From Thermoplasmata archaeon (GTDB taxonomy: Archaea > Thermoplasmatota > Thermoplasmata > Lutacidiplasmatales > UBA184): a stretch of 36,796 nucleotides of DNA. Both the position numbers and the translations under genes were made by a program. The notes below the pieces were generated by a model, which had not been told where the DNA came from, did not search any database, and saw nothing but the letters and a program-made list of their open reading frames with translations. Shown here one piece after another: positions 12,732 through 21,959 of this stretch (the stretch's first letter is position 1; each line of letters begins with the position of its first letter). Where the stretch lies: contig JAJYWS010000027.1 of assembly GCA_021791335.1 (NCBI GenBank), positions 52,379-89,174 of the forward strand, written 5' to 3'.

Positions 12732-14426
12732 TCACCCGGGGACTTCGGCCTGGGCCGAGACGGTCGGGGTCGGGCCGGGGACGGGGACCGGGGACGGGAG
12801 CGGGGCCTGGCCGGTCATCTGGCTCGGCAGCGGTTCCCCCCACGGGTCGTCGGTCTGCACCGGCGCGCCGGCGAAGTAGCTGTAGACCATGTTGTACACA
12901 AAGACCAGCTGGCCGATCGCGAAGATGTACGCCCCGAGCGTCGAGAGGAAGTTGAGCGCCTGGAAGTTACCGACCCACAGGTAGGTGTACACCCGCCGCG
13001 GCATCCCCTCGGCGCCGAGCAGGAACATCGGGAAGAGCAGGACGTTCACCCCGACGTACGTGAGGAGGAAGTGGACCTGGCCGAGCCGCTGGCTGTACCA
13101 TCGGCGGGTGAGCACCGGGAAGTAGAAGTAGATCCCGGCGAAGATCGCCATCAACGTCCCGCCGAGCAGGATGTAGTGGAAGTGGGCGACCACGAAGTAG
13201 GTCCCGTGGTAGAGGTAGTCGACCGGGATGCTCGCGAGGTAGAGGCCCGAGAGCCCTCCGATCACGAAGCCGGTGATGAACGCGACGCAGAACCACATCG
13301 GTACCGCCATCCAGATCCGCCCGCCCCAGAGGGTGGCGACCCAGTTGAACGTCTTGACGGCCGACGGCACGGCGATCGCCATCGTGGTGAGCATGAAGAC
13401 GAACCGGATGTTCTCGTTGATCCCGGTCACGAACATGTGGTGCTCCCAGACGGCAAAGCTGAGGACCGCGAAGACCCCGATGGCGATCGCCATCGCGGCG
13501 TAGCCGAAGATGTCCTTGCGCGCGAGCTTCGGGATGATCGTCGAGATGATCCCGAAGGCCGGCAGGACCATGATGTAGACCTCCGGGTGCGCGAAGAACC
13601 AGAACAGGTTCTGGTAGAGCAGGGCCCCGCCGAGCGGCGTGCCGTTGATGGACGCCAGGATCGAGGTCCCGAAGTTCCGGTCGGAGAGCACGAACGTGAG
13701 CGCGATCGACAGCGACGGCATCGCGAAAATGATCAGGACCGAGTTGACCAGGATGGTCCAGACGAACAGGGGCATGTTCCAGTACTCGACGCCCTTCGCG
13801 CGGTGCTTGAGGATCGTGACGATGAAATTGACCGACCCGAGGATGCTCGAGATGGTCAGGATGTGGAGGCCGAGGATCCAGAGGTCGATCCCGTTCCCCG
13901 GGGCGAGCACCGAGAGGGGGACATAGCCGGTCCAGCCCGCGTTGGCGTTGGAGAGGATGATGAGGATGCCCGCGGGCCACAGCATCCAGTAGGCGATCGC
14001 ATTGATCCGGGGAAGCGCCATCTCCCGCGCCCCGATCATCGACGGGACGAGGAAGTTCCCGAAGCCCGCCAGGGCCGGCATGATGAACATGAAGATCATC
14101 AGCACGCCGTGGATGGTGAAGAGGGTCGAGTAGACCTGCGGCGTGACCCCGAGGGTCGTCTGGGCGTCGAGACCGAGCCCCTGGATGAACCCCAGGTCGG
14201 TCCGGATCAGCATGGCGTAAATCCCACCGATGAAGAAGAAGATGATCGCCGTGACGATGTACATCCAGCCGATGCGCCGGTGATCGGTCGTGAAGAGGTA
14301 CTTCTTGATCGTCGAGACGACCCACTCCCCGTGGTAGAAGAGCGCCCAGAGGATGAACCCGGCGAGGCCCGCGATCAGCGCGACTTCGGTGTAGGCCGAC
14401 AGGAACGGAACTCCGGTGTTGGTCAT
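12732..14426 (-). CDS. coxA: Cytochrome c oxidase-type subunit I (aa3, A family)
   Basis: This is the catalytic subunit of the proton-pumping terminal oxidase. It has 564 residues and twelve or more spans. The low-spin heme ligands are H106 and H417; the high-spin heme ligand is H415. CuB is held by H280, H329 and H330, with Y284 the expected cross-linked tyrosine. E282 in HPEVY places it in the A1-type group with a D-channel glutamate, although the usual Gly before that His is Ala. K358 in SAVKTFNW is the K-channel Lys candidate. The C-terminal 40 residues are a Pro/Val-rich tail. It is embedded between small membrane-protein genes and ctaA. Subunit II is encoded on the other strand about 7 kb away, and no typical subunit III gene was seen. 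Confidence 0.96.
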
Positions 14427-14442: not shown

Positions 14443-14841
14443 TCACATCAAAAGGCCGGCCAGGATCCAGCCGATCCCCGCGGCCGCCGCCACCACGACG
14501 ATCACCTTGACGAGCAGGATCTGGCTCTCGACGCTGAGCGGGCGCGGCGCGGTCGGCGTGACGTGCCGGCCGAGGGGCCAGGTCCGGTACAGCCGGTCGA
14601 TGACATGGAAGAGCACCGCCCCGAACATCATCAGGAGCGAGACGGCGAGCCCGAACGACTGTTGGCCCCCGGGGGTGCCGAGGCCGGGCCCCGTGAACCC
14701 CATCCCGATGGTGATGGCGTAGGTGGCGAGCACCGCGATCCCGACCAGCACCAGTCCGACCGTCGCTCCGTAGACGCGGAGCGCGCGATTCTGGATCCGG
14801 GCGAACTCGGCCGGGGAGAGAGCATCCAGGGGGTCACTCAA
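14443..14841 (-). CDS. Small membrane protein, probable oxidase accessory subunit (132 aa)
   Basis: The protein has an amphipathic N-terminus, spans at about 24-47, 64-85 and 108-130, and a basic loop [12 protein letters not shown] between the second and third. No family was recognised. The start is a TTG overlapping the stop of the preceding gene. It is supported by AGGTGA six to seven bases upstream and by the lack of any other in-frame start before the first span. It lies 16 nt before oxidase subunit I. Because no subunit III or IV is visible, it is a candidate small oxidase subunit. Confidence 0.65.
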
Positions 14842-15115
14842 AGAACTTCACCTCGCGCGTCAGGGTTCCGCGGTAGCGATCGATGCGGTAGAGGATGCCC
14901 GCCATAAAAAGGAGGGAGAGGAGCGCGGCGGCCAGGCCGGCGAGGAGGATCGGGACGTAGAGCACGACCCAGCCGCCCGCCAATAGGGTCAGCAGGCCGT
15001 AGACGAAGAAGGCGGCACCCACCGTTCCCGCGACGAGAAAGCCCCCGAGGATCAGCCAGAGGACCCCGGTCTTCCAGTGGGGGGTCTCGGCCGGCGCGAC
15101 GGAGCTACTTGCCAT
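14834..15115 (-). CDS. Small two-span membrane protein (93 aa)
   Basis: The protein has two hydrophobic spans (about 16-42 and 48-73) and a short basic then acidic C-terminus ending KFFE. The ATG at 15115 overlaps the end of the cytochrome b gene by 11 nt, and its stop overlaps the TTG of the following gene, so translation through this junction is tightly coupled. No family was recognised. It could be a cytochrome bc small subunit or an oxidase subunit; position favours a structural role in one of these complexes. Confidence 0.65.
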   Translation of the reverse strand: MASSSVAPAETPHWKTGVLWLILGGFLVAGTVGAAFFVYGLLTLLAGGWVVLYVPILLAGLAAALLSLLFMAGILYRIDRYRGTLTREVKFFE

Positions 15116-16538
15116 AGCCCACCCCGGGGGAACTGGGAGAACCCATTGACGGGGCCGCGGCGACCGCCGGGGTGCTCCGGCGGCCGGCCGTCCCCTCCCG
15201 GTCGGACCCCAACGGGGCGTAGACCCCGGGGTACGACGGGATGCGTCGCTCGAGCCGTTGCCGATAGCTCCGCATATAGCGCCGGTGGAAAAGGCCGATC
15301 GCCAAGGCATTGACGACAAAGATCGGCCCGAGCCTCCAGATGATCGGGACGAGGCCGTTGGTGTAGGTGAACAGCTGGATCTGGATCGAGGGCTCCATCC
15401 CGCCCCAGACGGAGAGCAGGATGAAGAACTCGAGCAGCGAGGTGCCGATGAAGATGAAGAACGGCCGATCCCTCGGGTGGGTGCGGGGCGACCGGTCGAG
15501 GAACGGCAGGAACAGGATGAAGACCGCGATCACCGCCCCGATCGCCATCGCGTCCGGCGCCGGCATCGGGGTGGAGCCGTTCACGAAGTCGAGCATCTTG
15601 AACAACCACAGGAAGTACCAGTCGGGGACGATCACCGGCTGGACCGCGGCCGTGTTGCCGTAGTAGGTGGGCAGGCTCCACGGCCAGAGCGCGGCGATCC
15701 CGATCAAGACCCCGATGTACAGGAGCGCCCACTTGGTCATGTAGAAGAAGATGTGGGGCATGAAGGGGACGTGCTTCTTGTCCTCCTTCTCCGTGAATCG
15801 ACGTCGTTGGGAGGGGTCGGAGGAGGCCGGGGGAGCGATCCCGTGCGACTCGAAGAGCGCGATGTGGGCGTAGAGGAGCGCCCCCAGGGCGACCGGAATC
15901 AGCAGGACATGCGCGGTGAACATCCGCGACAGCAACGACTGGGGGGTCCCGTTCCCTAACAGGAAGGGGGCGATGAGGTTGCCCAGGTAGGGGGTGCGCA
16001 CGGCGAGGACAATGCCCACATCGGTCGCCCCATAGCTCAAGGCGGTGTAGGGCAGGAGGTACCCGGTGAAGCCCATGCCCAGCGTCGCCAGCATGAGGAG
16101 GGTGCCGACCATCCAGGAGAACTCCCGGGGCTTCTTGTACGCCCCCATGTAGTACCCGCGGTAGAAGTGCACCAGCATGAGGAAAATCATCGCGTAGGCG
16201 CCGTAGAGATGGCTCGAAAGGAGCAGGGACCCCATCGGGACCGAATTGATGATGTAGTAGGTGCTGCACCAGGCGGCCGGGGAGACCGAGAGGGTCCCCA
16301 CCGCCTGGCCGCAGGCCGTCAGGGTGGGGTTGACGCTCGGCTCGTAGTAGAGCAGCAGGAGCGCCCCCGAGACCACCTGGTAGAGGAAGGCGGTCGCGAC
16401 GAACGCCCCGGTCCAGTACGACGGCTTGAAGGTGAACTCAGGCTGGGGCCGGAGGGCCCACTTTTTCATCCCGGTCCGGTCCTCGACGAAGGTCCAGATC
16501 CGGTTCAGATTCCGATTGTACCAGCGAGCGAACGACAC
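15105..16538 (-). CDS. Cytochrome b of a bc-type complex (b6/bc fusion length)
   Basis: This is the quinol-oxidising membrane subunit that works with the Rieske protein. The heme ligands are the two His pairs H110/H124 and H210/H225. The Qo-site motif is PDWY (305-308), the variant of PEWY common outside mitochondria. At 477 residues it holds both the four-helix N-terminal part and a C-terminal part with further helices, ending in a Ser/Pro/Gly-rich tail. The GTG at 16538 is preceded by AGGAG at correct spacing and lies 10 nt after the Rieske stop. Electrons probably go on to the sulfocyanin-like protein at 20358-21122 and then to the aa3 oxidase. Confidence 0.95.
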   Translation of the reverse strand: MSFARWYNRNLNRIWTFVEDRTGMKKWALRPQPEFTFKPSYWTGAFVATAFLYQVVSGALLLLYYEPSVNPTLTACGQAVGTLSVSPAAWCSTYYIINSVPMGSLLLSSHLYGAYAMIFLMLVHFYRGYYMGAYKKPREFSWMVGTLLMLATLGMGFTGYLLPYTALSYGATDVGIVLAVRTPYLGNLIAPFLLGNGTPQSLLSRMFTAHVLLIPVALGALLYAHIALFESHGIAPPASSDPSQRRRFTEKEDKKHVPFMPHIFFYMTKWALLYIGVLIGIAALWPWSLPTYYGNTAAVQPVIVPDWYFLWLFKMLDFVNGSTPMPAPDAMAIGAVIAVFILFLPFLDRSPRTHPRDRPFFIFIGTSLLEFFILLSVWGGMEPSIQIQLFTYTNGLVPIIWRLGPIFVVNALAIGLFHRRYMRSYRQRLERRIPSYPGVYAPLGSDREGTAGRRSTPAVAAAPSMGSPSSPGVGYGK

Positions 16539-20357: not shown

Positions 20358-21122
20358 CTACTTTCCGGTGGGGGGGGTCCCGCTGTGGGGAGGCGATGGC
20401 TCCACGGGGGGCTCCGGGTACCCGAGCCGCTCGGGCGGCATCTCTTCGCCCTGGCGCCGCCGGCCCACCACGAAGGCGAGCACGACGGCAATGACAACGA
20501 GCGAGACGATCGTCCCCGTGATGATGAAGACCGGGAGCCCCGGGCCGGTGTTGACCGTGGCTCCGGACAGGTTCGAGGGCACATCCATCCCGAACGCCAA
20601 GAATCCGAACATCCCCGACTGGTAGTGGCCCGGCTCGGTGCAGATGAACTCGTACCAGCCCTTGGCGGGGGAGGTGAAGTTGATCTCCTTGCTCCCCAGG
20701 GTCGTCAGGAACGGGACGTTGACGAGCGGCGGATACTTGGCAAAGAAGCTGTTCAGCTGGCCCGCGGTCACGGCGGCCGGGTTGCCACCGGCCAGGCTCG
20801 CGAGGTTGTAGCCCTCGTTGCTCGCGTTCACGAGGGTGAACGTGTGGGCCAGGGAGCCGAGGGTGGTCAGGGTGACCGAGATCGTCGAGTTGGGGGCCAG
20901 GTTCCCGACCGCATTCGGGGAGAAGGCGAAGGCATTGGAGACCGAGATCGAAAGGCTGGTCGACCCCGAAGCGGTCACGGCCGACCCGCCCCCGGCCATC
21001 GCGGGGTCATTGGACGAGGAAACCGGGACCGCGAGAGCCAGGAGGGCCACCACGACGATCGCCGCCGCCGCCAGGGTCACGGCCGGCGTCACTTTCCGGG
21101 GAGCGCGAACGGGAATCGACAT
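20358..21122 (-). CDS. Sulfocyanin-like blue copper protein, membrane-anchored
   Basis: The protein is a probable electron carrier between the bc-type complex and the aa3 oxidase. Its cupredoxin domain has ligands H93 (LAHTFTL), C161, H166 and M171 in the pattern C-x4-H-x4-M, with the segment GWYEFI just before the Cys. It has an N-terminal span (about 11-33), a Ser/Gly-rich linker, the copper domain, and a second span (about 196-220) followed by a Pro-rich cytoplasmic tail. Counting from ATG 21122 gives 254 residues; a longer frame to 21254 is open but lacks a start signal. A TATA-like box is 27 bp upstream. It is divergent from the subunit II genes. Soxe-type sulfocyanin is the closest match; another archaeal halocyanin-like type is possible. 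Confidence 0.85.
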   Translation of the reverse strand: MSIPVRAPRKVTPAVTLAAAAIVVVALLALAVPVSSSNDPAMAGGGSAVTASGSTSLSISVSNAFAFSPNAVGNLAPNSTISVTLTTLGSLAHTFTLVNASNEGYNLASLAGGNPAAVTAGQLNSFFAKYPPLVNVPFLTTLGSKEINFTSPAKGWYEFICTEPGHYQSGMFGFLAFGMDVPSNLSGATVNTGPGLPVFIITGTIVSLVVIAVVLAFVVGRRRQGEEMPPERLGYPEPPVEPSPPHSGTPPTGK

Positions 21123-21230: not shown

Positions 21231-21240
21231 GAGATATGAA
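21231..21240 (+). promoter_or_regulatory. TATA-like box of the oxidase subunit II genes
   Basis: GAGATATGAA is centred about 27 bp before an in-frame GTG at 21263. The ATG at 21236 is part of the box. Confidence 0.45.
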
Positions 21241-21493
21241 TCCGGACTCCCCATGCTGCCTCGTGGACGCCTCGCCTTCCTCGTGGAGCGCCGCTGCCGT
21301 GGCCCCCGCCGTCGCCGTGGCGGGGACGATCGGGGCCCATTCGGCGGCGGCGACCCCCCTTCAGCAAACCCTGCCCCTAGTCTGGGTCCTCACCGGCATC
21401 TCGGTCGGGGGTGCGCTCATCACCTACGCCTTCTTGGTCTACGCCATCTACCGGTTCCGGGACCCCGCGACCCGCCGGAGGCGCTATGGTTAA
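21236..21493 (+). CDS. Cytochrome oxidase subunit II, N-terminal piece (first helix)
   Basis: This is an 85-residue open frame (or 76 if GTG 21263 is the start) with a hydrophobic N-terminal segment that may be a signal peptide and a strong span reading LVWVLTGISVGGALITYAF, then YAIYRFRDP and a basic stretch ending RRRRYG. That ending is what normally closes the first helix of oxidase subunit II. The following gene begins exactly where the usual LE--WT second-helix motif would follow. Removing one T from GGTTAAC at 21488-21494 would join the two frames as RRRYG-NKLELLWT. It is therefore probably not an independent protein: either a true split subunit, a frameshift-expressed gene, or a base error in this sequence. 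Confidence 0.7.
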   Translation: MNPDSPCCLVDASPSSWSAAAVAPAVAVAGTIGAHSAAATPLQQTLPLVWVLTGISVGGALITYAFLVYAIYRFRDPATRRRRYG

Positions 21494-21959
21494 CAAACTC
21501 GAACTCCTCTGGACCTTGGCGGTGATCGGTCTCATCACCGGGGTTGCCGTCTACTCCTCCTTCCTGTACTACAACCTCGGGGCCCTTCCGACCAATCCGG
21601 AAGAGTACGTCGAGGTCATCGGTCACCAGTGGTACTGGGAGTTCTGCTACGGCAACGGGAGCTGCTTCAACTCGTCGTACTCGCCGCCCTCCGGTTCGGG
21701 GAGCTTGGGTTCGGTTTCGGGCGGGGCTTTATGGGCGCCCGCGGGAGCCACGATCCAACTGAACATCACGTCCGCGGACGTGGTCCATTCCCTGAACATC
21801 CCGAACCTCGGGGTCCGTCTGGACGCCATCCCGGGCCGGATGAACCACATCGCGTTCACGGTCCCGGATGTGGCTCCGGGGACGATGTACCTGATCCAGT
21901 GCACCGAGTTTTGCGGGCAGGGGCATGGGATCATGCGGTCCTTCCTGGTCGTCACCTGA
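21486..21959 (+). CDS. coxB: Cytochrome oxidase subunit II, CuA domain piece
   Basis: This subunit receives electrons through the binuclear CuA centre and passes them to heme a in subunit I. The 157-residue piece carries one span (about 5-26), the aromatic GHQWYWEF block (46-53), and all CuA ligands: H101, C139, E141, C143, H147 and M150 in CTEFCGQGHGIM. The first helix of a standard subunit II is missing and is encoded by the overlapping upstream frame. The ATG lies in the last 8 nt of that frame. It is separated from subunit I, on the opposite strand. The insertion NGSCFNSSYSPPSGSG between strands is extra. Confidence 0.93.
   Translation: MVNKLELLWTLAVIGLITGVAVYSSFLYYNLGALPTNPEEYVEVIGHQWYWEFCYGNGSCFNSSYSPPSGSGSLGSVSGGALWAPAGATIQLNITSADVVHSLNIPNLGVRLDAIPGRMNHIAFTVPDVAPGTMYLIQCTEFCGQGHGIMRSFLVVT

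What the first reader, a model, noticed from the sequence alone, without database searches (positions are those of the whole stretch)
21236..21959. Oxidase subunit II split into two overlapping frames by one apparent extra T
The upstream frame ends YRFRDP...RRRRYG, the normal end of helix 1 of subunit II. The downstream frame starts MVNKLELLWT, the normal start of helix 2. Deleting one T in GGTTAAC (21488-21494) gives ...YG-NKLELLWT, matching the usual HGN-LE-WT pattern. The 8-nt overlap would also allow coupled translation of two polypeptides, or frameshifting. A genuinely two-piece subunit II would be unusual.
Basis: partly seen in the sequence, partly recalled or inferred. Interest (0 to 1): 0.65.

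Follow-up and report, generated by a model that had tools for sequence, protein, structure and literature searches.

The report
Oxidase subunit encoded in two pieces
In a group of uncultured soil archaea, a core part of the oxygen-consuming respiratory enzyme that is normally one protein is encoded by two slightly overlapping genes; the same split recurs across many related species, so it is real and not a sequencing slip.

Summary
The split is in the sequence as described and is genuine. An 85-codon frame (ATG 21236, stop 21491-21493) carries helix 1 of cytochrome oxidase subunit II. A second frame (ATG 21486 to 21956) carries helix 2 and the CuA domain, with an 8-nt overlap ATGGTTAA. The base-call-error reading is excluded: of 85 genomes of the order with a subunit II homologue, 80 of the 80 readable ones outside one genus show the same fission; 4 genomes of that genus have an undivided divergent gene and 1 contig is truncated. 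In the window's clade (72 genomes) the junction is always (T/C)A(T/C)GGNTRR, with all three stop codons used. The ATG is selected: its T is kept in 69 of 72 although TAT is 9% of Tyr codons in the same genes. Best reading: two polypeptides, made by coupled termination-reinitiation, assemble into a two-chain subunit II of an A1-type oxidase. Two lineages (3 genomes) changed ATG to ACG yet kept the frame; how they start is open. A new variant of a known theme (subunit IIa of B-type oxidases; split mitochondrial cox2), not found described in the held papers searched.

The parts
21236..21493 (+). coxB-N: helix-1 piece of subunit II (85 aa from ATG 21236; a GTG at 21263 giving 76 aa recurs at the same distance from the stop in many relatives, so the exact start is uncertain)
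   Evidence: helix 41-74 in model mf9c8acbfa828; profile match to helix 1 of undivided CoxB, probability 94%
21486..21959 (+). coxB-C: helix 2 plus CuA domain, 157 aa, with CTEFCGQGHGIM CuA motif
   Evidence: PF00116, TIGR02866 54-191/202, PDB subunit II sequences, Foldseek to subunit II structures
21486..21493 (+). 8-nt stop/start overlap ATGGTTAA
   Evidence: 72 of 72 clade-A genomes have (T/C)A(T/C)GGNTRR here, 69 of them with ATG
21477..21481 (+). GGAGG, Shine-Dalgarno-like, 4 nt before the internal ATG
   Evidence: codons upstream of the ATG favour anti-SD pairing over synonymous controls; anti-SD sequence recalled
12732..14426 (-). cytochrome oxidase subunit I (partner), A-type
   Evidence: TIGR02891 CtaD_CoxA best of 7 NCBIfam models, E 2.4e-178 though below its cut-off; HPEVY motif in the translation
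20358..21121 (-). divergent cupredoxin (rusticyanin/CopI-like), possible electron donor
   Evidence: weak NCBIfam matches, E 2e-8 and 8e-8; start position inferred

Best explanation
Subunit II of this A1-type haem-copper oxidase is made as two chains. The first gene encodes an N-out/C-in helix equal to helix 1 of ordinary subunit II. The second encodes helix 2 (N-in) and the extracytoplasmic CuA domain. The break lies in the short cytoplasmic loop between the helices, so both halves can insert separately and pack beside subunit I as the undivided subunit does. The ribosome that terminates at TAA re-initiates at the overlapping ATG (helped by a GGAGG just upstream), giving linked synthesis of the two chains. 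Shown: the conserved fission, homology of both pieces, selection for the ATG, purifying selection on the downstream frame. Inferred: two separate polypeptides in the cell, re-initiation, assembly, topology.
For: (1) Recurrence: 80 of 80 readable junctions outside genus g24 in the order, and the same arrangement in named public MAG contigs. (2) Junction: 72 of 72 clade-A genomes have (T/C)A(T/C)GGNTRR; TAT 59, CAT 10, TAC 3, versus background TAT 59/665 and CAT 72/320 in the same genes; other conserved Tyr columns have TAT in 1 of 43 up to 17 of 65 rows. (3) SD-like pairing before the ATG -7.85 versus -5.6 kcal/mol in synonymous controls. (4) Sister genera g25-g27 (8 genomes): separate frames with ATGA/GTGA 4-nt overlaps or 3-, 4- and 6-nt gaps, the second protein with an 18-68 aa leader in the 7 measured. 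(5) Helix-1 piece vs helix 1 of undivided CoxB of the class: hhalign 94%, controls with 7 other membrane proteins at most 2.1%. (6) CuA ligands invariant; folds as subunit II. (7) Overlaps of -4, -1 and -8 (ATGNNTGA) are the commonest overlaps in archaea and bacteria, -8 to +10 nt being taken as predictive of re-initiation and enriched for subunits of one complex (PMC10666635, passages).
Against: No protein or ribosome-profiling data. Three genomes in two lineages (L141, L142, L169) have ACG instead of ATG while the downstream frame stays conserved (L141/L142: dN 0.080, dS 0.80), so the ATG is not indispensable. The upstream piece is less conserved (median pN up 0.27, down 0.19) and one close pair gave an upstream dN/dS of 0.61 from very few changes. 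One SD control window 54 nt upstream also gave p 3.5e-4, so those p values are not calibrated. Helix-1 homology to Pelagibacter subunit II and to PDB chains was not detected.
Confidence: 0.85

Rival explanations
1. Base-call or assembly error: one extra T; the real gene is an ordinary undivided coxB.
For: A single-base change would restore an undivided frame in the window.
Against: Same split in 72 of 72 clade-A junctions with three stop codons and differing second codons, and in 8 of 8 clade-B genomes with other geometries.
Confidence: 0.01
2. Programmed +1 frameshifting at GGN-TRR makes a joined subunit II, alone or besides the short product.
For: Frames differ by +1 in 72 of 72. Three genomes lost the ATG and still conserve the frame. 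GGT is over-represented at the junction (64 of 72 vs 8.2% of Gly codons).
Against: A frameshift needs no ATG, yet the ATG is strongly selected. GGT is equally explained by Val as second residue of the downstream protein. Re-pairing of tRNA-Gly on GTT/GCT/GAT would be poor (inference). TAA, the commonest stop here, is not the slow UGA of known +1 sites (recalled). Clade B has gaps and 4-nt overlaps with long extra tails.
Confidence: 0.08
3. The helix-1 frame is a decaying remnant: only the single-helix CuA protein works, and the upstream frame is kept just to feed re-initiation.
For: Upstream piece is less conserved (mean column identity 47% vs 74%).
Against: Residues of helix 1 and its RDP end are nearly invariant. 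It persists in every split genome, also in sister genera. It is alignable to helix 1 of undivided genes.
Confidence: 0.06

Closest known systems
Subunit IIa + single-helix subunit II of B-type (ba3) oxidases, Thermus thermophilus and Aquifex aeolicus (PMC3128077, passages)
   Same: A small one-helix protein encoded directly upstream of a one-helix subunit II; together proposed as structural equivalent of two-helix subunit II.
   Different: Here subunit I is A-type; the small protein is alignable with helix 1 of undivided subunit II of its own class, whereas that paper reports opposite polarity and no sequence similarity for IIa; genes overlap by 8 nt here.
Split mitochondrial cox2 (cox2a/cox2b) of Campsomeris wasps, chlorophycean algae and alveolates (PMC5374615, abstract)
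   Same: Fission of subunit II into complementary polypeptides thought to form a heterodimer.
   Different: Those are mitochondrial or nuclear genes apart from each other (3 kb in the wasp); here an archaeal operon with overlapping genes.
-8 nt ATGNNTGA-type overlapping gene pairs coupled by termination-reinitiation (PMC10666635, PMC6728339, passages)
   Same: Same geometry, SD-like motif before the internal start, products expected in one complex.
   Different: Here the two genes are halves of one ancestral protein.
Lutacidiplasmatales complex IV locus (PMC9287336, sections 7 and 11 read)
   Same: Same locus: complex IV next to complex III, haem A/O synthesis, Tat, cupredoxin, and six unknown proteins; coxA is A1.
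   Different: The main text has no occurrence of 'subunit II' or 'fission'; the supplement was not seen.

Membership tests
Subunit II of A-type haem-copper oxidases (CoxB) | CuA domain with Cys-x3-Cys-x3-His-x2-Met and upstream His | tested here: met
   CTEFCGQGHGIM; C139, C143, H147, M150 and H101 invariant in the alignment; PF00116 72.2 bits vs cut-off 22
Subunit II of A-type haem-copper oxidases (CoxB) | Whole-length CoxB model matched over its cut-off | tested here: not met
   TIGR02866 113.5 bits vs 147.7, positions 54-191 of 202
Subunit II of A-type haem-copper oxidases (CoxB) | Two N-terminal helices in one chain | tested here: not met
   Helix 1 and helix 2 are in different frames; met only across the pair
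Subunit II of A-type haem-copper oxidases (CoxB) | Helix 1 homologous to that of undivided CoxB | tested here: met
   hhalign 94% to 4 undivided rows of the class, two of them identical; no detectable match to 50 Pelagibacter-group rows or PDB
B-type oxidase subunit IIa | Partner subunit I of B type | tested here: not met
   Subunit I best matches TIGR02891 CtaD_CoxA; the order's coxA is reported as A1
B-type oxidase subunit IIa | Opposite polarity to helix 1 of subunit II | tested here: inconclusive
   Only a charge argument: RFRDPATRRRRYG follows the helix, pointing to the usual polarity
Coupled overlapping gene pair (termination-reinitiation) | Overlap or gap within -8 to +10 nt, start codon under selection | tested here: met
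   8-nt overlap; T of ATG in 69 of 72; clade B -4 to +6
Coupled overlapping gene pair (termination-reinitiation) | Downstream translation depends on upstream translation | not testable with these tools
   needs a reporter assay or ribosome profiling
Programmed frameshift gene | Single fused product | not testable with these tools
   needs proteomics; sequence evidence is mostly against

The most novel reading that the evidence does not exclude
A two-chain subunit II is the rule, not an oddity, in A1 oxidases of much of class Thermoplasmata: besides this order, 17 of 17 single-helix subunit II loci examined from other families are immediately preceded by a small hydrophobic ORF (16 of them with a possible overlap of 4 nt or more), so helix 1 is an overlooked separate subunit. 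In three genomes of this order the second chain is started at ACG or reached by frameshifting.
Probability: 0.4. Interest if true: 0.62.

Novelty: new variant of a known kind. Interest (0 to 1): 0.52.

Why it matters
Subunit II is among the most conserved respiratory proteins and in A-type oxidases is normally one two-helix chain. A long-lived natural fission at the loop between the helices suggests that helix 1 can be a free subunit. It parallels subunit IIa of B-type oxidases and makes it testable whether IIa-like subunits arise by fission. It also means gene callers will annotate these genomes with a 'truncated' CoxB plus an unnamed membrane protein. The natural ATG-to-ACG lineages offer a test of non-canonical re-initiation in archaea.

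Tried and rejected
Sequencing error: rejected by relatives. Helix-1 profile against PDB sequences: two hits only, sugar transporters at E 1.2-1.3, no subunit II; a one-helix profile is probably too short for that search. Helix-1 profile against Pelagibacter-group subunit II: 2.3%, no match; the match is only to undivided genes of the same class. Link between the helix-1 piece and the small ORFs of families f19/f31: 49.5% and 46% as separate sets, 83.7% when sets were pooled, while pooled f19/f31 ORFs vs undivided CoxB gave 9.9%: suggestive, not shown. These ORFs were picked by length, position and a YP motif, so the 17 of 17 is partly by selection. dN/dS by NG86 is rough: many of the 25 pairs printed give values above 0.3, some near 1, because sites are few and saturated in this GC-rich group. 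SD test: effect at the junction, none at 18 nt, slight and in the other direction at 36 nt (p 0.04), but p 3.5e-4 at 54 nt. The pattern GGATCACCTCCT occurs 5 times in the genome; none was checked to be the 16S end. Phylum-wide search not run. Papers: no description found in searches of the held open library; subscription papers and supplements not seen.

Full report
What is there. On the + strand, frame A runs from ATG 21236 (or GTG 21263) to TAA 21491-21493 and ends ...LVYAIYRFRDPATRRRRYG. Frame B runs from ATG 21486 to its stop at 21957-21959 and begins MVNKLELLWT. They overlap by 8 nt (ATGGTTAA, 21486-21493), frame B being +1 of frame A. Frame B matches PF00116 (72.2 bits, cut-off 22) and TIGR02866 CoxB from profile position 54 to 191 of 202, so what it lacks is the first helix. 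It is the only PF00116 match in the 1.41-Mb genome. The gene lies in an oxidase/bc-type cluster: subunit I (12732-14426, best model TIGR02891), cytochrome b (SoxC-like), Rieske, TatC, a divergent cupredoxin, haem O synthase.

The organism. Nearest named relatives are 'Thermoplasmata archaeon' MAGs, among them AcS4-93, AcS1-45, AcS11-62 and SubAcS10-22. These four names appear in the genome table of the Lutacidiplasmatales paper (PMC9287336, passages). That paper describes the same neighbourhood and A1-type coxA (sections 7 and 11). Its main text has no occurrence of 'subunit II' or 'fission'.

The split is real. In 61 genomes searched, 30 had a match. The 27 genus loci with a strong match (own genome and 26 others) all carry the split with an ATGGNTRR overlap (one search's motif passed over the three with TGA stops, which one search shows and includes). 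A profile search over 106 genomes of the order matched 88. Three of these (G003, G014, G015) have only weak matches in ~900-aa frames and were dropped. Of the remaining 85, 72 (62 of the window's genus g1, 6 of g28, 4 of g29; 'clade A') have the split with +1 frames. Eight of g25-g27 ('clade B') have the split with 4-nt overlaps (5 genomes) or gaps of 3, 4 and 6 nt (7 by profile; L145 by eye). Four of g24 have an undivided, divergent two-helix gene. One (G084) begins at a contig edge. Among 34 named loci looked at out of 80 kept, 25 have the ATGGNTRR split, 4 lack that motif and belong to clade B, and 5 are undivided (L059 and four alphaproteobacterial controls). Named and unnamed sets overlap and are not independent.

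Selection at the junction. The codon before Gly is TAT 59, CAT 10, TAC 3; Gly is GGT 64, GGA 4, GGC 4; the stop is TAA 50, TAG 16, TGA 6 (72 genomes). In the same genes TAT is 59 of 665 Tyr codons and CAT 72 of 320 His codons. Other conserved Tyr columns hold TAT in 1 of 43 to 17 of 65 rows. So the T that makes the ATG is selected although it is synonymous for frame A. Whole-genome codon usage was not available. The six codons before it pair with the anti-SD better than synonymous versions (-7.85 vs -5.6; 63 of 72, 64 of 72). Control windows 18 and 36 nt further up show no such strengthening; the one at 54 nt does to a lesser degree. Relatedness is not corrected for.

Homology of the pieces. 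Frame B alignments keep the CuA ligands invariant and match PDB subunit II chains such as 1ar1_B. The model (mean pLDDT 82) has one helix 4-30 followed by a beta domain; its best Foldseek matches include subunit II chains 1ar1_B, 1occ_B and the CoxB periplasmic domain 4w9z. Frame A alignments have nearly invariant helix residues and an R-D-P end; the model is one helix 41-74 with low confidence elsewhere. Profile comparison of 72 frame-A pieces to four undivided CoxB rows of the same class (two of them the same locus) gave 94% over helix 1, against at most 2.1% for seven other membrane proteins of the window; pooled with clade B, 96%. Against Pelagibacter-group rows and PDB nothing was found.

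How it works. The break is in the cytoplasmic loop, so each half keeps a normal topology (inference from charges). Overlaps of 8 nt of the ATGNNTGA type are the third commonest overlap in the survey of PMC10666635, where pairs at -8 to +10 nt are enriched for subunits of one complex (passages); re-initiation at overlapping genes was shown in Haloferax (PMC6728339, passages). I therefore favour coupled synthesis of two chains. Frameshifting is disfavoured because it would not need the ATG and does not explain clade B.

The unexplained part. L141 and L142 (g28) and L169 (g1) have TAC, hence ACG, at the junction. The tree of 78 rows (L177 left out as partial, L145 as lacking a profile-found junction) requires two independent changes. 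L141 has no ATG/GTG/TTG upstream in frame B and only GTG/ATG at codons 7 and 8; L142 has GTG at -201 and TTG at -93; L169 has ATG at -102. Yet frame B stays conserved (L141/L142 dN 0.080, dS 0.80). ACG initiation with a strong SD, a far upstream start, or frameshifting are all possible.

Wider distribution. In 400 genomes of the class 174 matched (its match list is truncated). Of 20 loci fetched from that list, 17 (families f19 and f31, one from f11) hold single-helix genes in open frames of 145-199 aa, and all 17 have a small hydrophobic ORF just upstream, mostly with ATGA/GTGA overlaps; in L182 the first usual start lies 26 nt after the stop. The other three (f25, f26) are undivided. Whether those small ORFs are the same helix 1 is suggestive only (46-84%).

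Comparison with the known. It works like subunit IIa plus II of ba3 oxidases (PMC3128077, passages) but is not a member: subunit I is A-type and the piece aligns with helix 1 of undivided genes. It parallels split mitochondrial cox2 (PMC5374615, abstract).

Noticed in passing
L195 (535 aa), L197 (491 aa): Undivided CoxB of other families in the class carry a long C-terminal extension that looks cupredoxin-like, as if the electron donor were fused on.
   Followed up: no
window 14834-15319 (-); L058, L060, L061: A small membrane protein in the oxidase cluster without NCBIfam match has look-alikes (...YRVDRLRGNLTRRVEMFE) in sister genera.
   Followed up: no
L153, L154 (G069, G067): Genus g26 genomes have a second subunit II homologue in which no helix-1 match was found either.
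   Followed up: no
G003, G009, G013, G014, G015, G086, G092, G097, G116 and others: Frames of mostly about 900-1000 aa with weak CuA-domain matches, possibly nitrous-oxide-reductase-like or multicopper proteins.
   Followed up: no
L141, L142, L169: Natural ATG-to-ACG change at the internal start in two lineages.
   Followed up: partly
L193: Family f31 also has an 8-nt overlap (ATGAATAA) between the small ORF and the single-helix subunit II.
   Followed up: no
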